A DNA stretch of 44,955 nt from a virus: positions 1-44,955 of the IMG/VR virus record IMGVR_UViG_3300048838_000097. One strand, written 5' to 3'. Positions 1,843 through 36,107 of the stretch are shown piece by piece. How positions within the stretch are numbered: the first letter of the stretch is position 1; each line of letters starts with the position of its first letter. Under the pieces are notes generated by a model. It worked only from the letters and a program-made list of their open reading frames with translations, did no database searches and was not told the origin of the DNA. The translations under genes were made by a program, and so were the position numbers.

Positions 1843-2415
1843 ATGGACGAAAAACGCATAGCCTCCTTCTTAGCCCGAGGCTTAAAACCTTCTCAAGTAG
1901 CTGCTATAGTAGGCTGTACTCCAGCTTATATAACCCAGCTTGGTCAGAAAGAAACCTTCAAGGCTTTACTAGATGAAGTTCAAGCAGAGGCTGAAGGCCA
2001 AGATGGCGAGCTGGCGGAAGAAGAAATCTTAGCTACTAAATATCTAGCAGTGGAGCATAAGATCCTTAAGCAAATCGAGGATACTATGCCTTTTGCTGAA
2101 TTTACTCATCTGACTAAAGCTTTAGAAGTTGTGGGTAAGAGACAAGAAGAACGAGCTAAGAGAAAAATGATGAGTAGACTACCAGGGCTCGCTGGGCCGG
2201 CCGGCAGTCTTACAGTAAGTCTGACTGTGCCAATCCATGCAATCCCTGAGTATACTATTAATCCTCAAGGACAGATAACCTCTATCAATGAGAAGGTGTT
2301 AGCTCCTCTATCTTCTCAAGGTGTAAAAGATTTGTTTGATAAGCTACAAGGTAGGGCTGCCCCCGGCCCCGGCGCGGATTTAGAACCTTTGGATGAGGTT
2401 ATAATAGATGGCTAA
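1843..2415 (+). CDS. Terminase small subunit (probable)
   Basis: A 190-residue protein whose first 40 residues form a helix-turn-helix (RIASFLARGLKPSQVAAIVG then TPAYITQL), the usual DNA-recognition domain of small terminases and related homeodomain-like folds. A helical middle (about 60-110) would oligomerise, and the C-terminal third is Pro/Gly-rich. It is the first gene of the packaging operon, two genes before the large terminase. TerS would form a ring that recognises phage DNA and presents it to TerL. It overlaps the next gene by 8 bases. Assignment rests on domain and position. Confidence 0.65.
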   Translation: MDEKRIASFLARGLKPSQVAAIVGCTPAYITQLGQKETFKALLDEVQAEAEGQDGELAEEEILATKYLAVEHKILKQIEDTMPFAEFTHLTKALEVVGKRQEERAKRKMMSRLPGLAGPAGSLTVSLTVPIHAIPEYTINPQGQITSINEKVLAPLSSQGVKDLFDKLQGRAAPGPGADLEPLDEVIIDG

Positions 2416-3433
2416 AGAAGATGAGCAGACTGATCCTGGCCCAGCTCCTAAAGAAGATCCTAGTAATGATCTAGTAAACACTTTACTATCTTTGGCTAAA
2501 GGGGCGGGTCGAGGACTTACTACAGATGCTGTAGGAGCTCCTGTAGACATCATTAATATGCTTCTAGGCGCAGTAGGGCTTCCAGTATCAGAGGAGCCTT
2601 TCGGTGGATCTAAGCATATTAGGGGACTTACTAATCAGCCGAAAGAAGATACTGGTACTGAGACAGTAGGTAATCTCTTATCAGCTTTTGTAAATCCTAC
2701 TACGGCTTCAACTAAAGTAGCTACTATTCTGCCTCTCCTAGGAGGTATCTTCATGGGAGAGAAGTCTAAGACTTTCAGTAAAGGTCTAGCTAAAACTTTC
2801 GAAGAACTAGAGAAGGCTAAGACTCTGCCTACTAAATCCTTCCAACTTACTAATACCCATCGGGGGCCCCTCGATCAGAAGCTTAGACAGGAAATATCCG
2901 ATCTGCCTGCTGAATTAGAAGCAGATCTTAAAGCCCTAGAAGATGCGGGTATAGAAGTAGTCTTGAGGGATGTATTAAAACATGATGACCTTTATGACGC
3001 TTATCCTGATTTAGCGCATATCAATCTAAAGTCCAAAGCAGGCACTGGAGGAAATTATAACAGTGATACGGATACTATTAGGATTGGTCTAAATCAATCT
3101 CCTGACGATATGCTTAATGTGCTTCTACATGAGGTACAGCATGCTATTCAAGGTAAAGAAGGATTTGTTCGGGGAGGCAATCCTTCTATGATGGCAGCTT
3201 CCCCTGCTTTTCAAGAAGCATCTGCTAACCTACCAAAGAATTCTCCTAAAAAACAAGAGGAGGTAGGTTTACTTCTTAATGAGCTCTATATGCGTCTAGG
3301 AGGAGAAGCAGAGGCTAGGGCAGTTCAGCGTAGATGGCTAGATGAAAAAGCAATCCCCGGATCTACCATCAATAAGAATCCTCTGTTCTCTTATGATCGT
3401 CAAATATCGGATCTTCTATGGCCCCCTCAGTAA
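2408..3433 (+). CDS. Zincin-like metallopeptidase-domain phage protein
   Basis: 341 residues. Residues 35-75 contain GAPVDIINMLLGAVGLPV followed by a GGSKHI pattern that recurs in large polyvalent/ejected phage proteins. The C-terminal half has the zinc motif HEVQH (H241, E242, H245), then EGFVRGG (251-257) and GEAEAR (299-304), whose Glu could be the third ligand. Similar HExxH/GGN/EAR domains occur in phage large polyvalent proteins. It may be carried in the virion or act during capsid maturation; no substrate is evident. It lies between small and large terminase and overlaps the latter by 16 bases. GAGG sits 9 bases before ATG 2408. Confidence 0.7.
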   Translation: MAKEDEQTDPGPAPKEDPSNDLVNTLLSLAKGAGRGLTTDAVGAPVDIINMLLGAVGLPVSEEPFGGSKHIRGLTNQPKEDTGTETVGNLLSAFVNPTTASTKVATILPLLGGIFMGEKSKTFSKGLAKTFEELEKAKTLPTKSFQLTNTHRGPLDQKLRQEISDLPAELEADLKALEDAGIEVVLRDVLKHDDLYDAYPDLAHINLKSKAGTGGNYNSDTDTIRIGLNQSPDDMLNVLLHEVQHAIQGKEGFVRGGNPSMMAASPAFQEASANLPKNSPKKQEEVGLLLNELYMRLGGEAEARAVQRRWLDEKAIPGSTINKNPLFSYDRQISDLLWPPQ

Positions 3434-10908: not shown

Positions 10909-11165
10909 GCTTAGTAGCTGAAGGAGCCATCTACTGGCGCTTTGCTTCTGAGGTACAAAGGCTGGCCTTAACCCCGGCCTTAAATCAGTATAATCGAATT
11001 GCTCTACAAGAGGACACAGGTTCCTTTTATCTATCTGATCCTTCTGGCTGGCTTCCTCTTGGTTCAGGAGGAGCTGGCGGAGATGAGAATATAGATGGAG
11101 GGACAGCCTTTACCGTCTACGGTGGTAGTCTAGTCGTCGAAGGAGGTAATGCAAGTGGCAGTTAA
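10905..11165 (+). CDS. Small fibre-associated protein
   Basis: 86 residues; it contains ALQEDTGSFYLSDPSGWLPL, a motif common to short beta domains of phage fibres (tolerance to linker position before a fibre shaft), and a Gly-rich C-terminal tail. The ATG overlaps the stop of the adaptor gene, and its own end overlaps the next fibre gene by 11 bases, suggesting coupled translation. Confidence 0.7.
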   Translation: MSLVAEGAIYWRFASEVQRLALTPALNQYNRIALQEDTGSFYLSDPSGWLPLGSGGAGGDENIDGGTAFTVYGGSLVVEGGNASGS

Positions 11166-11877
11166 AATACAGTTTAGACGTGATACTGCTGCTAATTGGA
11201 CTTCTGTTAATCCCGTCTTATCTAATGGTGAGATGGGATTAGAGACTGATACAGCCAAGTTTAAATTAGGCGATGGAGCTACTGCCTGGAATTCATTAGG
11301 CTATAGTCCTGATGGACGCACTATCTTAAATGGAGCAGTAGATCCTACTACAGAAGGTGTTAATGGTGATTTCTATATTAACACAGTCTCTACTACTATC
11401 TTTGGGCCTAAAGCCGGTGGTTCATGGCCTGCTGGAGTTAGCCTAGTAGGTCCTACGGGTGCAACAGGAGCCACTGGAGCCACGGGGGCTACCGGCCCGA
11501 CAGGGGCTACTGGTGCAACTGGAGCTACTGGACCTACGGGGCCACTTGATCCTGATGTCACAGATACTCTAACAGTGGGCTACGCTACTACTCCTAGTGA
11601 TCAGGGTACTAAATCTACTGGAACTTTTACTCCATCTGAAGCTAATGGAGCTATGCAGTATTATGTTAATGGTGGAGCCCATACCCTAGCTCCTCCTACA
11701 AATAATACTACCTTAGTAATTCAGATTACCAATAATGCTTCTGCTGGAGCTATTACTACTTCTGGATTTACTATTGTAACAGGAGATACTCCTGGAACAG
11801 TAAATGGAGATGATTTCATAGCTTATATAACTAAGATCAATGGCTTTAGTCATCTTCACTGGCAGGCGCTCCAGTAA
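11155..11877 (+). CDS. Tail fibre protein with Mtd_N-like head and collagen-like shaft
   Basis: 240 residues from GTG 11155, preferred over ATG 11149 because AGGAGG (11141-11146) is 8 bases before GTG but only 2 before ATG. Residues 5-45 match the N-terminal domain of Bordetella phage Mtd-type fibres (FRRDTAANW, GEMGLETDT, FKLGDGATAWNSLGY). A collagen-like Gly-X-Thr/Ala run is encoded at 11449-11544, 32 residues, and a small beta domain ends the protein. It probably forms a trimeric fibre. No variable repeat or reverse transcriptase accompanies it. Confidence 0.8.
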   Translation: MAVKIQFRRDTAANWTSVNPVLSNGEMGLETDTAKFKLGDGATAWNSLGYSPDGRTILNGAVDPTTEGVNGDFYINTVSTTIFGPKAGGSWPAGVSLVGPTGATGATGATGATGPTGATGATGATGPTGPLDPDVTDTLTVGYATTPSDQGTKSTGTFTPSEANGAMQYYVNGGAHTLAPPTNNTTLVIQITNNASAGAITTSGFTIVTGDTPGTVNGDDFIAYITKINGFSHLHWQALQ

Positions 11878-13466
11878 TGTTTCCTCTACCTACTTTCATG
11901 CCTAGTGCGGTAATACCAGAGATAGCAAAGTCCCTGCGCTGTGATGCTGTGGATAATTCTTATCTACATCGTACTCCCGGTAGTGCAGGAAATCTAAAGA
12001 AATGGACTTGGAGTGGGTGGGTAAAAGCTACTACTCTTGGAACTTCTAAATTCTTCTTCTGTGTATTTGATTATGCAGGTGGAGGATCTACTAATAAACA
12101 ACATGCTATTTGTTTTCGTGCAGACAATACCCTAGAATTCTATCATTTTTCTAACACGGGATATACCGGTAGAAAGATATCTACGGCAGTATTTAGAGAT
12201 CCTACTGCTTGGTATCATATAGTGGCTGTATGGGATACTGATAATGCCACTGCCGCAGATAGGATGAAGTTATATGTAAATGGGACAAGAATAACCTCCT
12301 TTGGAACTTCCTCTGATCCATCTAGTGGTACTAATGGAGATGTGAATAGGGCTTTCCTACATACTATGGGAGGTTCTTATGATCCTGATTATGCTTTAGG
12401 TAATCTTCATGATGGCAACCTAGCAAGAATCTGTTTTGTAGATGGTCAAGCTCTAGATGCTTCTTCATTTGGATATACTGATTCTAAAGGGCAATGGCGA
12501 ACTAAACCCCTTTCTACTCTTAAGACTTTAGTAGAATCTGGGGGAGTTACTAGTTTCTTAGAAGAATTCAATAATGGTACATCTACTACCACACTAGGTT
12601 ACGATTATTCAAGTAAAGGAAATAATTGGACTCTAAATAATTTTACTCGATCAGTCGGGGCTACTGATGATTGGTTTGAAGATACTCCTACCAATAATTT
12701 CTGTACTTTAAATCCTTTAGATCATTTAAATACGAATGCTCCTACTAATGGGGGACTTAAGATAGTTACAGGAGTATCTACTTCTTATGGAGCTACTAGT
12801 ACTTTCCGAATTCCTACTACTGGTAAATGGTTCTGGGAGTTTGTTTATACAGCAGGAGCCTATTGTTTCTCTGGTATAGTTAACCCGCCGGCATGGCCTA
12901 ATTACGTAGTTTATTATACTAACGGCCAGAAGTATATTAATGGCACGGGTAGTGCCTATGGAGCATCCTATACTATTAATGATATTATAGGTGTTCTGGC
13001 TGATGCCGATGCCGGTACTTTAACTTTCTATAAGAATGGTGTATCTCAAGGAGCTATTACAGTAGATTTCTCTAGCGGAGACTGGGCAGCATGGGCTGCA
13101 GATGGATCTTCTGGAAATTCTACTACTCAGATATTTAACTTTGGGCAGAGGGCCTTTGCTTACTCGATACCTTCTGGAGCTAAGAAGCTTTGTACTAAGG
13201 ATTTGCCTGAGGGTACAGTAGTTATATCTGGTTCTTTTACTGGCAATGCTAATGCTAATGGGCCTATGGTAGTGCTTAATGGAACTCCTACTGCTATGAC
13301 CATTAATGGAAATGCTGTAACCTTCGGTACACACGCAGATAAATTAGCTAATGGCTTTAAGCTTCGTACCAGTTCTGCTAGCTATAATACAGCAGGCTCT
13401 AATACCTACTCTGTAAGTACTAATGCAGGGGTCTTTAAATATAATAATGCTGAGGTAAATCCTTAA
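11877..13466 (+). CDS. Receptor-binding fibre/adhesin with LamG-like and SPRY-like domains
   Basis: 529 residues, beta-rich. Residues about 25-190 resemble a concanavalin/LamG fold (KKWTWSGWVKA, TAWYHIVAVWDT, KLYVNGTRI). Residues about 300-430 resemble a SPRY domain (GKWFWEFVYTAG, DIIGVLADADAGTLTFYKNG). Both folds bind carbohydrate or protein ligands, so a host-surface adhesin is likely. The ATG overlaps the stop of the Mtd_N fibre gene by one base (TAATG), and the end overlaps the holin-like gene by one base. Confidence 0.8.
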   Translation: MFPLPTFMPSAVIPEIAKSLRCDAVDNSYLHRTPGSAGNLKKWTWSGWVKATTLGTSKFFFCVFDYAGGGSTNKQHAICFRADNTLEFYHFSNTGYTGRKISTAVFRDPTAWYHIVAVWDTDNATAADRMKLYVNGTRITSFGTSSDPSSGTNGDVNRAFLHTMGGSYDPDYALGNLHDGNLARICFVDGQALDASSFGYTDSKGQWRTKPLSTLKTLVESGGVTSFLEEFNNGTSTTTLGYDYSSKGNNWTLNNFTRSVGATDDWFEDTPTNNFCTLNPLDHLNTNAPTNGGLKIVTGVSTSYGATSTFRIPTTGKWFWEFVYTAGAYCFSGIVNPPAWPNYVVYYTNGQKYINGTGSAYGASYTINDIIGVLADADAGTLTFYKNGVSQGAITVDFSSGDWAAWAADGSSGNSTTQIFNFGQRAFAYSIPSGAKKLCTKDLPEGTVVISGSFTGNANANGPMVVLNGTPTAMTINGNAVTFGTHADKLANGFKLRTSSASYNTAGSNTYSVSTNAGVFKYNNAEVNP

Positions 13467-20954: not shown

Positions 20955-22592
20955 ATGGCTAATGAAATTACTGATTTTGATTCTTTCTTTAAATCACTAG
21001 CAGCTCCTTCTAATGATCTTCCGGAAGGTTTTGATACTCCTTCATCCGCTCCTACTTTAGCCACTCAGAAGAAAGTTGATGCTTTGCAGACTAAGTGGGG
21101 TAAACAAGGATTTAAGTTTGAGTTAGATGAAAAAGGGCAGATGGTTATTAGTAATACTCCAGAAACTAGACAAGCTCAAGCTCCTACTATTACTGCTCCC
21201 ACAGAAGATCAACGTCTGGTAGGTAAAAATCTCCAAGCTCAGATTAATGCTATTCAAACAGAGGCTAGCCCAGAAGCCCGTCAACAGCTCTATCAGAATC
21301 TTCAAGTATCAGCAGCTTCTGAGAAAGCTAGATACTGGAATGAAGCTATGGCCCAAGCGGGAGTTAAACTTCAAGTTCCTCAATTAGAGGCAGCTTTAGC
21401 TCAGAATGAGGCTTTAGATAGACAAGATCCTCGTTGGGCAGAATTTCAGTCAGACTCTCCTATCACAGCTAAATTAAGAACCCAGCTTCAAGCTGCTAGA
21501 AGTCAGGTAGATAATGAGGCTAAGAATATGCTGGCAGGTAATGTAGGTCTAGCTGCTTTGACTACTCAGTTAGCTGCTATGAGCAAGCTTATGGAGCGCA
21601 AAGAGCGCCTAGGTGAGCAGCTAGATATTTGGAAAGAGCAGAAAGAATTTACTAAAGAACTTCAGGCAGAAGCAGAGAAAGAACGGCTTCTTGAGACAGT
21701 ATCTCCTGAAATGATTGCTAGGGCAAGTATCCTGGATCCTTCTCTTAACGGTAAGCCTGCTGAAGTCATTGCTCGACATATAGTCAAGGGAGTGAAAGAT
21801 AATGCTATGAAGGCAGTCCTAGCAGCTCCTGATGAAGCCCTATCTCTGCTTACTTTCGGAGAGGATAATAAGCATGCTGCTAAGGTTCTGATGAAGAAAG
21901 AAGAAGAAAGAACAGGTAGAACTTCTGCTGATGTAGCAGATCAGATGAAGGCTATCGGCAGAACTATGACAGACGAGAAGCAGCTTAGGAAAGATCTTAG
22001 CATCGTTTATAGAGGAGATAAGAAGGCTCAAGAGGAATATCTAGCTGCTGTAACTAGGGCTAAAGTAGGCGGTACTAAAGCTGACAAAGAGGCTGCTCAT
22101 GGAGCTAGAGTACAGGTAGCTTTAGCAGTACAGGCTAGAATGGCTGAGGCTAGATTTACTAAAGACCTTCGTCAATGGAGAGGGTACGCTGATCCTATGA
22201 TGCAGCCTGCTATTGAGAAATCAATGATTAATACAGGCAAGGCTGATCTTGAGAATGTCCTAGCTGCTTATATTGGAGATGCTACAGGCCAAGAACGCAG
22301 AGTCCTAGTAGACTCCTTTATTGCTGCTATGAAAGTATCAGGAGATGCTGGTCCAAGCAAGAGCTTGATAGCGCCTGTAGATACTCAACAGATAGCTACA
22401 GTAATTCAACGACTGGCAGTAGAGAAAAGCTTAGCCGGTCAACTAGGTTCTGATTTTAATAAGTGGCTTACAGGTTCATTAGATGAACGAGGATTAAAGA
22501 GTAGAATGATTCCTGCTCCGTATAATGTTCCTATTGAGGGCGCTACTGATGCTATCTCTGATTTCTTTGGAGTAAAGAATAATGGCGAATAA
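20955..22592 (+). CDS. Internal/ejection protein, helical
   Basis: 545 residues, almost wholly helical and charged, with long predicted coiled coils (about 70-250, including MSKLMERKERLGEQLDIWKE). No enzymatic motif is seen. The second of three ejection-type genes; the end overlaps the next start by 11 bases. By analogy with T7 gp15/gp16 or P22 gp16/gp20 it may form part of the trans-envelope DNA channel. Confidence 0.65.
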   Translation: MANEITDFDSFFKSLAAPSNDLPEGFDTPSSAPTLATQKKVDALQTKWGKQGFKFELDEKGQMVISNTPETRQAQAPTITAPTEDQRLVGKNLQAQINAIQTEASPEARQQLYQNLQVSAASEKARYWNEAMAQAGVKLQVPQLEAALAQNEALDRQDPRWAEFQSDSPITAKLRTQLQAARSQVDNEAKNMLAGNVGLAALTTQLAAMSKLMERKERLGEQLDIWKEQKEFTKELQAEAEKERLLETVSPEMIARASILDPSLNGKPAEVIARHIVKGVKDNAMKAVLAAPDEALSLLTFGEDNKHAAKVLMKKEEERTGRTSADVADQMKAIGRTMTDEKQLRKDLSIVYRGDKKAQEEYLAAVTRAKVGGTKADKEAAHGARVQVALAVQARMAEARFTKDLRQWRGYADPMMQPAIEKSMINTGKADLENVLAAYIGDATGQERRVLVDSFIAAMKVSGDAGPSKSLIAPVDTQQIATVIQRLAVEKSLAGQLGSDFNKWLTGSLDERGLKSRMIPAPYNVPIEGATDAISDFFGVKNNGE

Positions 22593-25500
22593 CGAATCTC
22601 TGTATGATCCTTCAGTTAACCTAGACTACATGGATAGATACGATCAGCAATCTAATATCGTATCTGATTTAGCTGGTGGTACTGTAGCTTCTGTAGTTGA
22701 TTTCGGAGCTTCTGTATGGAATTCGCTTCCAGGGACTGAGGAAGTAGATACTGCTGATTTGCTGTCTAGAGTATCCAGTAATGCCCTGCGAGTCTACGAA
22801 GAGCATCCTGATGCTGTGCAAGCTGCTTCTTTCATTGGAGGTATCTTTGCTCCTGCTGGTTTAGCTATGAAGGGCATGAACGCTCTTAGAGCTGGAACCA
22901 AAGGAGCTACTTGGTTCAATGATGCAGGTAAAGCAAGTAGACTTAAAGAGATGGATGAACTCTTTGCTAAGGGCGGTAAAGCTACTGCTGAATACAGAGC
23001 TGCTAGAAATGCTCATTTAGCTAAGACTGCTGCTAATCAAATGGTAGACTCTTTTGCTATTGAAGGAGCTATCATTGGTGCTATGAATGCTCACCCTTTC
23101 ATGGAAGATTACATGAAAGACCCAGTATCTAACTTTTTGATTTGGGGTGCTGTGGGTGGAGTAATAGGAGGTGGTATAGGAGCTATCGGCGAGAATTATC
23201 TAATGAAGCAAGGAGCAGGTAATATTGCTGCCAAAGCTGTTAAGACTGTAGTAGATGATATTCGAGTAGTGCCTGAAGGGCTGCCGATGGTCAGTAAGCT
23301 ACAAGTCCGTCAGCAGAATATCCAGAATTTGGAAGCCCTGCTCGGTCATGCTTCTGAAGTAGGCCCAAGAGCAGAACTCAATGAGCTTACTAAAGATGTC
23401 GCAGAGAAGATTCTGTTGAAAGAGAAAGCTAGGCAGGTAGAAGATTTCGAGAAGATGTCTTCTACTATGATTCAAGGCCTAGAGAAAGCTGATCAAGATC
23501 TAATCATGCAGAGATTGATAGACGATCCTAGGTTCGCGGGAGTCGATGCTATCAGCCTTTTAAGAATAGAAGAGAAGAATGTATCTCCTTTCCAAGCTGC
23601 TAAGGCTGCTTTAGCGGATACCTTCGACTTTCAGGCTGCGATGAATAAAAAGACTCAGACAGCCTTTCTTAAAGAGCAAGTCTTATTTACTGAATTTAAT
23701 AAAGCAGGCTCAAGGGCTCATGCAGCTCATTATGCTAGGGCTAATGCTTTAGGTCTCAAAGAAGCCGATATTGGTAAGCTTGGTAAACAGTATACTAAAG
23801 TACCTCATACCGATGCTTCCTTGGAGCTAGCCTTCAAAGATACTGCCCATGTGGATAAGCTCTACTTAGATGCTCTTAAGCATGTGGATGAATTAGATGC
23901 TAAAGCTCTGGCTAAAGTAGTAGTTGATCCCGATGATATACCTACCTTACAGGCTCTCTTTGCTCGGATCCAAAAAGATCCTGAAGCTTTTGAGAAAGCT
24001 AAGATTATTCTTACTAAATCAGAGCCTAACTACGGAGCTATCGAGCAAGCAGTATTTAAGGCAGGAGGAGTCAGTGCGGATCATCTCACTAAGATAACCA
24101 AGATGACATCAGGAGATGACCGATATAATATCGTAGCTAGTCGCGGTCTTAGTGAGGATGCTAGGACTATGCTAGATGACTGGGTAGGCGGAAATCCTTC
24201 TGCTAAAGATGCCTTTAGAAGGGCCTTCGATGCCTTCTTTCGTGAAGCTAGTTTAAGTAAGAATAAGGGCATAGCAGAAGAAATATATAATTCTACTGGG
24301 TCTAGGGCCTTTAGGGAAGAATTAAGAAAGCTAGCAGATGCTGACGGTAATATATATCTTTATCGTGGTATTAGGGGACAAGCTAAAGGCCACTCTGCTG
24401 TAGAATCCTATACTCCTTCAGCCTCAGTAGCAGCATCTTTTGGAGGTAAGAAGCTATATAAAGTCCATGTAGATGATGTGATAGGCACAGTCAGAATTAG
24501 CCTCAGAGAATTTGAAGTGCTGGTAGGCTCCCCCGCCAGACAAGTAGAAGCTACCTTGCCTATCATGAATGAGGCAGGTAAAGTAGCATCTGTGACTAAG
24601 CTCTCTACTACGCACAAAGAGATCACTCCTATCGAACTCTCTGCTCATTTGATGGCAAAGAAAGAAGAAGCTATCCGGGCTTATGTAGCTCAGGGTATGC
24701 CTATGGAGACTATTGCTATTCGTACTAATACTCCTCTAGATGCGGTGCAGGCTTTTGTTCTGTCTAATGCAGATAGCTTAATGGATATAGAGAAATCTTG
24801 GATTAGCTACAATGAAGCTTCTAAGATTGCTGAATATCTTTCACCTCAACTTCAGCCTTTGGTATTGAAAGCTAATATCAATAAGGTGCCCTACGCTACT
24901 CTTTCAGCTAATCTGGATGCTAGGGCTACAATGAATATCAATCAGCAGATCATTGAAGCTTTTACTCTAGGCTCTCAATCTCAGACTGCTAGAGAGTTTG
25001 GAGCTGCTGTATTTGGTGAATGGCGCTATGCTTTGGATATCCTAAGATCAGAAGTGTCCAATGCTGTAAATCAGAAGGCAGGTAATAAGTTCTTTACTTC
25101 TACTGATTTCTTTGTCCGAGACATGGGAGACTTTGGTCAGATAGCTAATGTGGTAGGCAAGAAGATTCAGCATATTGCGAACCAAGCCGAGAAAAGATTG
25201 ATTCAGCCTCTGACTGAACATATGAATAAGATTGCCCCTAATGAGCTTTCTAGGGTAGAGATCAATACAGCTTTGAAGCTTAATGCAGAATTGACTGGCC
25301 CCCGGGCTTATAAGGATCGTCAGTTCTGGCAGATGGAAGAAGTTATTAGAGATGGCAAGAAGGTACAAGAAGCTGTACCTGTGAGATTCCAAGGCAAGGA
25401 ATTTAAGGTAGTCTTAGATGATGTAGATGCTTTGCTGCAAGAGCTTGATAAATCAGGCAGAGAGCTTTATAACCTTAAGAATACTATTAACGAGATTCTT

Positions 25501-27765
25501 GGTAAACCTAATGTCAATGACCTAGGTTTCTGGGTTCCGGCCTTCAATCCTACTGGCAAGCATATTTCTTATGTCTGGAATAAGCTAGATGATTCTACTC
25601 AGATTCTTTGGGGAAATACAGCAGAAGAATTGGCTACAGCAGAGAAAGCTTATGGCGCAGCCTTTGCTGATAAAATCGCTAGGAAAGAAATTCTGATTGT
25701 TACTAAGTCGGATCAAGAGCTACATAATAAACTTAATGGGCGGCTTGATCCTCTTACTATGGCAATTGCGAACGTAGAAAGAATGCATACAGGAGCATCT
25801 AGCCCAGCTATCGTAAAAGCTAATGTAGACATCTTCGGAGAGATCGCAGGAGGTTATCAGCATTACATTAACTCTCATGTGCGCTCTTTGGCTGAACTCT
25901 CGATGCACGATATTACTGATATCCTAGATAAGATGTCAGCAGTTAATAAGCATTACTTTGAGAATCAGCCTTTGTCTATTGTAGGTAAGCTTACCCATAA
26001 GCCAGAAGATGCGGCCCGAGTAATGAAGAATACCTTAATAGGTAATTCTAATCTGACTGAGTATACTAATTGGAAGCAGGTTAATCAATCCTTTGAAACA
26101 GGAATGAACTGGGCTATAGGTAAGATGCAGGCTGCTTGGAAGGAAGCTACTAAGCTAGTCAAGAAGCCTGATGATTTATCTAAGCTTGATTATGAAAAGC
26201 TGGCTAAAGAACTAGATGCTGCCGGCATTCATAATCCCTGGGCCGTATTCGATCAAGAGGCAGCTAATCTGTTCAAGGTAGCTAAGTTAACAGAAGCCAC
26301 CAATGTATCACCTAGGATGATCTATACCTCTAATGCACTAGCTGCTACAGTAGCTTTGAGGTTTGGTGAATTAGCCCAGCCTATAGTTAATGCTATAAGC
26401 CTGCCTATCCTTACTACCTCTGCTATTGTAAATAGGATGCCTAGTACTTTCATGGGAGTGCAGAAAGGTACAGCTAAGTTTAATCCTGTGCAGGTTATGT
26501 ATGAAGGTGCTAGAGCTTCTAACTCTCAGCATTGGAAAAAGTTAGATGATCTCTGGGCTAAGGAAGGATACTATGAGCCCTTCGTATCAGAAGCTACTGC
26601 TGTAATGAGACAATCTAGAAGCTTTGAACCCGGCTCCTTAGCTAAAGTAGAGAAAGCCCTTGATTCTAATCTAGTTCAATGGATGTCCTGGACTGCGGAT
26701 AAATCAGAATCTATGGTACGTCGCCAGGCTATGTTCACTGGTGGAGTTCTTGCTAAAAGACTCTATCCGGAGCTAGATGATGTAGGAGTTACTATCTTTG
26801 CCAGAGACTTCATGGATAAAGCTATTGGTAACTATCATGCTTCTCAGCGTCCTGTATTCTTCCAAGGTACTTTAGGTACTGCGATGGGCTTGTTCCAGAC
26901 TTATATGCTCACTATGGGACAGAGTATGTACCGTCATCTGGAATTAAAGAATTATAAAGCTTTGGGTAAGATGATGCTAGCTCAGTCTAGTATCTTCGGA
27001 GCAGGCTCTCTGCCGGGATTTAGTATTGTATCTAAGACAATAGGAGAGCATTTCTCCGATGATAATGTGGATTTGACTACAGGAACTTTTCGGGCTTTAG
27101 GGGATAAGACAGCTAGCCTAGTTCTCTACGGTCTACCTTCTAATCTCGGGCCGGCATTCTATTCCCGAGGCGAGATTGCTCCTAGAGTTCCTAGCGGGTT
27201 GACTGGTCTGCCTACTGTATCTATGGTAGGTCAGACTTTGCAATCAGCTTTGCAGCTTACTCAAGCCCTCAGTAAGGACTATCCCGATGTATCCCGAGCC
27301 TTTGGGGAAGCTCTTTCTATGCAGTCTATGAGCAGACCTCTAGCTCGTGGAGCAGAATTGCTTACTGGCTATAGTGTAACTAGGCAAGGAAATACTATAG
27401 CCAGTCCTGATGAAGTCTGGACAACTACTGGAATTATGGCAAGGATTCTAGGCACTAGGCCGCTAGAAGAAGCTAAGTTGCGGGAGGCGATTCATCTTAA
27501 TCATTATTACTCAGCTTTGGATCATGATGCTAGACAGAAGGTGACAGAAGAACTTAAGATAGCTATTAGGAATAATGAGCTGACAGATAGTAAATTAAGC
27601 AGACTGGCTGAGGAGTATATGAGGACTGGAACGCCTCAAGGATGGAGAGCAGCTTTGAATACTGCTATAGGACAATCTAATGTTTCTGGTAAGTATGCTT
27701 TAATGAAGAAGCTCCGTCCAGATGATCCTCTGAACTTTATGATAGATCAGATGGACGGAGAGTGA
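22582..27765 (+). CDS. Giant internal/ejection protein with ADP-ribosyltransferase domain
   Basis: 1727 residues. Residues 60-110 and 180-205 (NFLIWGAVGGVIGGGIGAIG) are membrane-active. At about 520-660 an ADP-ribosyltransferase (ART) domain is visible: R595 in YRG (594-596), an S-T-S-like segment YTPSASVAASF (610-620), and the E-x-E pair E643/E645 in EFEVLV. The long C-terminal part is helical, with hydrophobic segments near 1430-1460. It is the last structural gene, in the slot of T7 gp16-like proteins. An ART moved into the host with the DNA could modify host proteins at once, as T4 Alt does. The ART call is from motifs; the role is inferred. Confidence 0.75.
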   Translation: MANNESLYDPSVNLDYMDRYDQQSNIVSDLAGGTVASVVDFGASVWNSLPGTEEVDTADLLSRVSSNALRVYEEHPDAVQAASFIGGIFAPAGLAMKGMNALRAGTKGATWFNDAGKASRLKEMDELFAKGGKATAEYRAARNAHLAKTAANQMVDSFAIEGAIIGAMNAHPFMEDYMKDPVSNFLIWGAVGGVIGGGIGAIGENYLMKQGAGNIAAKAVKTVVDDIRVVPEGLPMVSKLQVRQQNIQNLEALLGHASEVGPRAELNELTKDVAEKILLKEKARQVEDFEKMSSTMIQGLEKADQDLIMQRLIDDPRFAGVDAISLLRIEEKNVSPFQAAKAALADTFDFQAAMNKKTQTAFLKEQVLFTEFNKAGSRAHAAHYARANALGLKEADIGKLGKQYTKVPHTDASLELAFKDTAHVDKLYLDALKHVDELDAKALAKVVVDPDDIPTLQALFARIQKDPEAFEKAKIILTKSEPNYGAIEQAVFKAGGVSADHLTKITKMTSGDDRYNIVASRGLSEDARTMLDDWVGGNPSAKDAFRRAFDAFFREASLSKNKGIAEEIYNSTGSRAFREELRKLADADGNIYLYRGIRGQAKGHSAVESYTPSASVAASFGGKKLYKVHVDDVIGTVRISLREFEVLVGSPARQVEATLPIMNEAGKVASVTKLSTTHKEITPIELSAHLMAKKEEAIRAYVAQGMPMETIAIRTNTPLDAVQAFVLSNADSLMDIEKSWISYNEASKIAEYLSPQLQPLVLKANINKVPYATLSANLDARATMNINQQIIEAFTLGSQSQTAREFGAAVFGEWRYALDILRSEVSNAVNQKAGNKFFTSTDFFVRDMGDFGQIANVVGKKIQHIANQAEKRLIQPLTEHMNKIAPNELSRVEINTALKLNAELTGPRAYKDRQFWQMEEVIRDGKKVQEAVPVRFQGKEFKVVLDDVDALLQELDKSGRELYNLKNTINEILGKPNVNDLGFWVPAFNPTGKHISYVWNKLDDSTQILWGNTAEELATAEKAYGAAFADKIARKEILIVTKSDQELHNKLNGRLDPLTMAIANVERMHTGASSPAIVKANVDIFGEIAGGYQHYINSHVRSLAELSMHDITDILDKMSAVNKHYFENQPLSIVGKLTHKPEDAARVMKNTLIGNSNLTEYTNWKQVNQSFETGMNWAIGKMQAAWKEATKLVKKPDDLSKLDYEKLAKELDAAGIHNPWAVFDQEAANLFKVAKLTEATNVSPRMIYTSNALAATVALRFGELAQPIVNAISLPILTTSAIVNRMPSTFMGVQKGTAKFNPVQVMYEGARASNSQHWKKLDDLWAKEGYYEPFVSEATAVMRQSRSFEPGSLAKVEKALDSNLVQWMSWTADKSESMVRRQAMFTGGVLAKRLYPELDDVGVTIFARDFMDKAIGNYHASQRPVFFQGTLGTAMGLFQTYMLTMGQSMYRHLELKNYKALGKMMLAQSSIFGAGSLPGFSIVSKTIGEHFSDDNVDLTTGTFRALGDKTASLVLYGLPSNLGPAFYSRGEIAPRVPSGLTGLPTVSMVGQTLQSALQLTQALSKDYPDVSRAFGEALSMQSMSRPLARGAELLTGYSVTRQGNTIASPDEVWTTTGIMARILGTRPLEEAKLREAIHLNHYYSALDHDARQKVTEELKIAIRNNELTDSKLSRLAEEYMRTGTPQGWRAALNTAIGQSNVSGKYALMKKLRPDDPLNFMIDQMDGE

Positions 27766-36018: not shown

Positions 36019-36107
36019 TGGTACCTGAGGCCGGACTTGAACCGGCATAGCCACTTAAGGCTGAGGGATTTTAAGTCCCTTGTGTCTACCAATTTCACCA
36101 CCCAGGC
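36019..36107 (-). tRNA. tRNA-Leu (anticodon UAA)
   Basis: Cloverleaf on the minus strand: acceptor GCCTGGG (36107-36101) pairs with CTCAGGT, followed by discriminator A and an encoded CCA (36021-36019). The anticodon arm is GGGACTTAAAATCCC with UAA in the loop, the variable arm is long as expected for leucine, and the T arm carries GGTTCAAGTCC. It reads UUA/UUG, and UUA is used freely in the AT-rich phage genes. It lies inside the early operon between two protein genes and is probably cut from the long transcript. Confidence 0.95.

What the first reader, a model, noticed from the sequence alone, without database searches (positions are those of the whole stretch)
24280..24560. ADP-ribosyltransferase domain embedded in a giant ejected virion protein
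Seen: in the 1727-residue last structural protein, YRG (R595), YTPSASVAASF (610-620) and E643-x-E645 occur in the order and rough spacing of the R-S-E class of ADP-ribosyltransferases. Known: T4 injects Alt, an ART that modifies host RNA polymerase, and ARTs also occur as toxin domains in phage MuF-type proteins. Inference: this phage, which has no RNA polymerase of its own and relies on sigma70-type promoters, may deliver a host-modifying enzyme with its DNA as part of the ejection machinery itself. The ART is flanked by helical ejection-type sequence instead of sitting at a terminus.
Basis: partly seen in the sequence, partly recalled or inferred. Interest (0 to 1): 0.65.

Follow-up and report, generated by a model that had tools for sequence, protein, structure and literature searches.

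The report
Optional ADP-ribosyltransferase cassette in phage protein
A short-tailed bacterial virus carries, inside the middle of its largest virion protein, a compact enzyme domain of the kind that attaches ADP-ribose to other proteins; related viruses carry or lack this same cassette at exactly the same spot, which suggests an optional enzyme that is shipped into the host together with the viral DNA.

Summary
Residues 595, 609, 643 and 645 of the 1727-aa protein (window 22582-27765) form an R-S-ExE array. A loose form of that motif turns up in 85% of shuffles, so it proves nothing alone. Stronger evidence: (i) in 22 homologous domains R is kept 20/22, S 21/22, catalytic E645 21/22; E643 is not conserved (9 E, 9 N); (ii) an AlphaFold model of the core (pLDDT 86) matches ADP-ribosyltransferases (ARTs) as its six best PDB hits (weak E-values, best 0.023); (iii) its profile aligns with phage T4 ModA/ModB in register at R, S, A..F and E-x-E (P = 1e-4; 0 of 200 shuffled controls as good). 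The ART lies in a ~197-residue cassette (residues ~480-676) that is cleanly absent, with nearly the same borders, from at least five related lineages, including ones about 80% identical elsewhere. No database names it (PHROG 16165 'unknown function'; no Pfam hit). Best reading: an optional R-S-E-clade mono-ADP-ribosyltransferase delivered by a podoviral ejection-type protein. Ejection, activity and target are inferred. New variant of a known kind (virion-packaged phage ARTs), with a delivery arrangement I did not find described.

The parts
22582..27765 (+). gene of the 1727-aa giant virion (ejection-type) protein, homologue of PaP2/119X p25, PaMx41 structural protein, Tiera gp22, EBPR podovirus 3 gp20 (PHROG 16165)
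   Evidence: ORF; PHROG 16165 E=2.7e-278; 17 phage records covering at least 80% at 35-41% identity
24019..24609 (+). optional cassette, residues ~480-676, absent with nearly the same borders from slot-empty relatives
   Evidence: deletions 479-676 (L009), 484-675 (L038), 479-676 (L044), 481-671 (L024, L036), 479-669 (L060) relative to the window protein; borders are alignment estimates, +/- about 10 residues
24145..24567 (+). ART core: four helices followed by the beta core, residues 522-662
   Evidence: AlphaFold model pLDDT 86.3, pTM 0.79; Foldseek PDB top six hits all ART folds
24364..24366 (+). R595, first-strand arginine of the R-S-E array (YRG)
   Evidence: R in 20 of 22, K in 2; aligned with the invariant R72 of ModA/ModB
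24406..24441 (+). S609-Y-T-x5-A617-x-x-F620, the S-x-[ST] strand and following helix
   Evidence: S 21 of 22, F620 19 of 21; same spacing as S-F-T-x5-A-C-S-F of T4 ModB
24508..24516 (+). E643-F-E645, ARTT motif; E645 is the presumed catalytic glutamate
   Evidence: E645 in 21 of 22; position 643 is E in 9, N in 9; aligned with E163-x-E165 of ModA in the global profile alignment
24628..24765 (+). helix-turn-helix-like segment just after the cassette (residues ~683-728, IAIRTNTPLDAV), kept also in slot-empty relatives
   Evidence: three helices in the model; Foldseek small hits to NarL, sigma region 4 and RIIB-type HTH; present in empty members
20955..22592 (+). 545-aa protein just upstream, overlapping the giant gene; its positional counterpart p24 in PaP2 is annotated virion structural protein
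   Evidence: ORF; PaP2 annotation

Best explanation
The region is a compact NAD+-dependent mono-ADP-ribosyltransferase domain of the R-S-E clade, nearest among the families tested to T4 ModA/ModB, carried as an optional internal cassette of a giant podoviral virion protein. Most likely the giant protein travels with the DNA during ejection, and the ART then ADP-ribosylates one or more host macromolecules at the start of infection, before any phage gene is expressed, as T4 Alt does. The cassette is dispensable for the basic role of the giant protein, because several relatives have lost it (or never had it). Shown by computation: the domain, its conserved catalytic array, its fold class, its presence/absence. 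Inferred: ejection, activity, a host protein as target (RNA polymerase is one candidate only).
For: Conservation of R595, S609 and E645 in 22 domains that are 25-46% identical to the window domain. AlphaFold core model pLDDT 86.3/pTM 0.79 with helices then strands 69-76 (R), 86-90 (S), 101-108, 112-117, 123-128 (ExE); PDB Foldseek ranks 1-6 are ExoS ART (best prob 0.91), the ART-like D4 of CNFy (best 0.87; CNF D4 called ART-like in PMC9426531) and CDTa, with iota Ia and the RCD1 PARP domain lower down. Profile-profile match to ModA/ModB, P=1.1e-4, 0 of 200 column-shuffled controls as good, reversed profile 0.15%; of 64 windows along the whole giant family the four best against ModA/ModB all lie in 521-676. 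Clean presence/absence: L029 with the ART versus L024/L036 without, 79-82% identical elsewhere; at least 6 changes forced on the tree; same borders in at least five lineages. Slot-empty genomes have no ART elsewhere in their records, while six ART-bearing genomes ring at E 1e-39 or better. Purifying selection on the ART, dN/dS 0.12-0.25 in the two informative pairs. Virion class: last gene of the structural block; structural-protein annotation in PaMx41 and Tiera.
Against: No structure hit reaches E<=0.001 and TM-scores are 0.3-0.4; no Pfam, NCBIfam, PADLOC or PDB sequence hit; hhalign with the Alt profile found only the YRG stretch, and the local ModA/ModB alignment covers only 29-34 columns. 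The expected last strand is modelled with low confidence (pLDDT ~52), so the domain is unusually small. Two relatives have decayed catalytic residues (L028 R->K; L093 R->K, S->T, E->Q) while keeping the domain, so some members may be non-enzymatic. Ejection rests on position, size and family annotation; no proteomics was available to me.
Confidence: 0.77

Rival explanations
1. The domain has the ART fold but is a pseudo-enzyme: a structural or binding element of the giant protein that no longer uses NAD+.
For: Two relatives, L028 and L093, keep the domain with a broken R-S-E array; position 643 is not conserved; the last strand is poorly modelled.
Against: R, S and E are together intact in 20 of 22 domains at low overall identity, and L093, the one that lost E, lost R and S too, as expected when catalysis is dropped; a purely structural element would hardly be dispensable with its whole cassette.
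Confidence: 0.13
2. An active ART that acts inside the virion or on phage products (self-modification of the ejection complex or the DNA) and not on host proteins.
For: It is embedded in the machinery with no separating linker recognised; ART automodification is common (own knowledge); an HTH-like segment follows directly.
Against: Repeated loss of the cassette without loss of the giant protein shows the machinery works without it; the known precedent, Alt, acts on host proteins (PMC9503650).
Confidence: 0.12
3. A NADase or NAD+-dependent counter-defence enzyme that depletes or remodels NAD+ or its signals rather than modifying a protein.
For: Nine of 22 domains have N-x-E instead of E-x-E, and position -2 of the catalytic E influences acceptor choice in R-S-E ARTs (own knowledge); NAD+-based defence is common and early injected enzymes would be well timed (PMC9503650).
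Against: The window domain has E-x-E, as in T4 ModA/ModB; packaged enzymes come in few copies, which suits modification of a protein better than emptying the NAD+ pool (inference).
Confidence: 0.1
4. Not an ART at all: chance likeness of a small alpha/beta domain.
For: No family-library hit and no Foldseek E-value under 0.001; the bare motif is common by chance.
Against: Six of six top PDB hits are ART folds, and the ModA/ModB profile match is in register at all catalytic positions with 0 of 200 controls as good.
Confidence: 0.06

Closest known systems
T4 ModA/ModB (early-expressed phage ADP-ribosyltransferases of the Alt/VIP2, R-S-E clade)
   Same: Same array in the same order: [LW]YRG-type strand, V-x-S-[FYA]-[ST]-x5-A-x-x-F, E-x-E; profile match P=1.1e-4
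   Different: ModA/ModB are ~200-aa stand-alone proteins made after infection, with R and catalytic E 93 residues apart in ModA; here 50 residues, inside a 1727-aa virion protein
T4 Alt (virion-packaged, injected ART)
   Same: R-S-E array and the presumed delivery with the DNA (PMC9503650, PMC5512222)
   Different: Alt is a separate head protein of a myovirus with the ART near its C terminus and a long insert after STS; profile comparison with Alt gave only the YRG piece. Here the ART is an internal cassette of a podoviral ejection-type protein
ARTs of phage polyvalent proteins (H-Y-D, Tox-ART-HYD2 clade), e.g. in the N4-like vRNAP of Roseovarius Plymouth podovirus 1 (PMC5512222)
   Same: ART inside a giant podoviral virion protein thought to be injected
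   Different: Different active-site class (H-Y-D against R-S-E); [quoted passage not shown]
   Same: Virion protein fused to an ART
   Different: There the enzyme is fused to a MuF head domain; here it is internal to an unrelated giant protein, with no MuF domain recognised by Pfam
ExoS ART domain / CNFy D4 (structural neighbours only)
   Same: Best PDB fold matches, prob 0.91 and 0.87
   Different: Toxins of other delivery systems; 12-19% identity; no statement of common function

Membership tests
ADP-ribosyltransferase superfamily, R-S-E clade | Arg in strand 1, S-x-[ST] strand, catalytic Glu in the [EQ]xE motif | tested here: met
   R 20/22, S 21/22, E645 21/22; in the window domain the motif is E-F-E, in the family the -2 position is E or N, not E/Q only
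ADP-ribosyltransferase superfamily, R-S-E clade | split beta-sheet ART fold | tested here: met
   model strands and helices in ART order, top six PDB hits ART; weak E-values, last strand uncertain
ADP-ribosyltransferase superfamily, R-S-E clade | NAD+ binding and transfer activity | not testable with these tools
   needs biochemistry
Alt/ModA/ModB (Alt/VIP2) family | sequence-profile relationship | tested here: inconclusive
   ModA/ModB P=1.1e-4 with controls, hhalign probability only 56%; Alt profile no; no Pfam PF03496 match
Packaged and injected phage ART (Alt-like delivery) | present in the virion and delivered to the cell | not testable with these tools
   position in the structural block and 'structural protein' annotation of homologues only
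Polyvalent-protein ART (H-Y-D, HYD2 clade) | H-Y-[EDQ] active site | tested here: not met
   the array is R-S-E
MuF-ART | MuF domain fused to the ART | tested here: not met
   no MuF domain by Pfam in the protein

The most novel reading that the evidence does not exclude
The PaP2-like giant ejection proteins have a fixed internal cargo slot for an enzyme: an R-S-E ART with two acceptor-specificity types (E-x-E and N-x-E) that is lost repeatedly as a whole cassette, so that the DNA-ejection protein doubles as a delivery vehicle for an optional effector acting on the host before any phage gene is read.
Probability: 0.5. Interest if true: 0.75.

Novelty: new variant of a known kind. Interest (0 to 1): 0.6.

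Why it matters
[quoted passage not shown] A conserved but unannotated R-S-E ART inside the giant virion protein of a podovirus lineage that includes cultured Pseudomonas phages (PaP2, 119X, PaMx41) suggests that such counts miss divergent domains. Natural pairs of phages about 80% identical in this protein, with and without the cassette, give a direct way to ask what an injected ART is for.

Tried and rejected
Pfam, NCBIfam, PADLOC and PDB-sequence searches gave no ART, so family membership could not be read off a library. A first structure model with flanks (residues 440-735) gave PDB hits dominated by the HTH-like tail; trimming to the core solved this. T4 Alt profile: only the YRG stretch aligned. 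Genome-contig scans found no relatives of the giant protein or of the ART; plasmids none. Idea that slot-empty relatives carry a different enzyme in the slot: rejected for the close clade (25-50 residues remain); the 'filled' slots of the distant clade look like misaligned backbone, not shown to be cargo. Idea that slot-empty phages carry the ART elsewhere: no match in their records (control 132), some of which are fragments. Horizontal spread of the cassette: cassette and backbone distances correlate (Mantel r=0.71, against 0.93 for the two backbone halves), so mostly vertical with losses, some exchange not excluded. dN/dS for very close pairs is uninformative. No DNA repeats were obvious at the cassette border in L029/L024/L036 (by eye). 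Tiera paper: no mass spectrometry or SDS-PAGE found in the text; the PaMx41 paper is not held.

Full report
What was checked. The 1727-aa ORF at 22582-27765 (+) is real and closes the structural block of a podovirus-like genome (SU10-type portal and major capsid protein by Pfam; terminase large subunit); the replication genes follow on the minus strand (family A DNA polymerase, primase, helicase). It belongs to PHROG 16165, 'unknown function', and is homologous over its length to p25 of Pseudomonas phages PaP2 and 119X, to the PaMx41 structural protein, to Polaromonas phage Tiera gp22 and EBPR podovirus 3 gp20, and to many IMG/VR contigs.

The motif. The motif in loose form is nearly expected by chance: 85% of shuffled versions of the protein contain it. 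So the claim needs independent support.

Conservation. Across 22 domains (25-46% identical to the window domain) R595 is R in 20 and K in 2, S609 is S in 21, E645 is E in 21; E643 is E in 9, N in 9, otherwise T, A or K. The catalytic glutamate is thus most likely E645, and the residue two before it has switched type. L028 (R to K) and L093 (R to K, S to T, E to Q) look like decayed copies. dN/dS of the ART in two informative pairs is 0.12-0.25 (rest of the protein 0.06-0.14), purifying but faster than the backbone.

Fold. AlphaFold2 on the core (residues 522-666, 22 sequences) gives pLDDT 86.3 and pTM 0.79: four helices, then strands carrying R and S, a short helix with A..F, two strands and the E-x-E strand. 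Foldseek against the PDB puts ART folds at ranks 1-6: ExoS (twice; best prob 0.91, E 0.023), CNFy D4 (three times; best prob 0.87) and CDTa; iota Ia and the RCD1 PARP domain follow lower down. CNF D4 is described as an ART-like domain in PMC9426531. E-values are weak and TM-scores 0.3-0.4, so the statement is 'ART-like fold', not a close match. The larger first model was diluted by an HTH-like tail.

Relation to known ARTs. A profile of ten ModA/ModB proteins has as invariant residues R, G, V-x-S, A..F and E-x-E. The window domain has YRG, VES, A..F and EFE, with the same S-to-F spacing (ModB SFTTSLHTACSF, window SYTPSASVAASF). hhalign on the cores gives P=1.1e-4, probability 56%, 0 of 200 column-shuffled controls as high; forced global alignment puts E643/E645 on E163/E165 of ModA. 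A reversed profile scores nothing, and of 64 windows along the whole giant-protein family the four best against ModA/ModB are all within residues 521-676. The Alt profile alone aligned only the YRG part.

A cassette. In L009, L010, L024, L036, L038, L044, L046/L060 and L049 the stretch corresponding to residues ~480-676 is replaced by 25-50 residues. The borders coincide to within about 10 residues in at least five lineages. The sharpest case is L029 (ART) against L024 and L036 (empty), 79-82% identical elsewhere. On a tree of residues 740-1720 the ART label needs 8 changes, at least 6 forced by well-supported branches. Cassette distances follow backbone distances (Mantel r 0.71), so repeated loss is the simplest account. 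Slot-empty records have no ART elsewhere while six ART-bearing records are found at once by the same search.

Interpretation. I conclude that this is an R-S-E-clade ART carried as an optional module of a giant ejection-type protein (domain identity about 0.9; ejection plus action on a host molecule about 0.75; RNA polymerase as the target about 0.2). The steps shown by computation are domain, catalytic residues, fold class and presence/absence. Delivery, activity and target are inferred from position, from homologues annotated as structural, and from T4 Alt as precedent. Optionality argues against the ART being a necessary part of the ejection machine.

Literature. PMC9503650 reports ARTs in 30% of myoviruses but only 3% of siphoviruses and podoviruses and describes MuF-fused Alt/VIP2 and N4-ART enzymes. 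[quoted passage not shown] I found no paper describing an ART in the PaP2-like giant protein, but the library is incomplete and the PaMx41 genome paper is not held.

Noticed in passing
window 2408-3433 (+): 341-aa protein with an HEVQH metallopeptidase motif (DUF6782-like, E=8.5e-6) next to the terminase gene; in L002 a homologue sits directly after the giant gene and weakly matches a polyvalent-protein-associated domain (LPD23, E=0.036).
   Followed up: partly
window 24628-24765: HTH-like helices directly after the ART cassette, kept in slot-empty relatives; a possible DNA-binding element in the virion protein.
   Followed up: partly
L049 11214-11681: A 156-residue insert at the position equivalent to window residue 1229 in a slot-empty giant protein; acetyltransferase-like by eye, no Pfam support. 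A second possible cargo site.
   Followed up: partly
L021, L081 (and similar distant homologues): Giant proteins of a distant clade carry HExGH motifs of metallopeptidase type near the slot region (L021 YHEKGH, L081 HEEGH); no Pfam hit.
   Followed up: partly
ART domains of L003, L005, L007, L012, L015, L029, L040, L048, L095: N-x-E in place of E-x-E at the catalytic motif, seen in two separate clades; may mark a different acceptor.
   Followed up: partly
window 36019-36107 (-): tRNA-Leu (anticodon taa) within the early gene region.
   Followed up: no
window 11149-13466 (+): Receptor-binding-type genes: Mtd_N plus collagen-like repeats (11453-11546), then a Laminin_G_3/SPRY protein; possible diversity-generating context not examined.
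   Followed up: no
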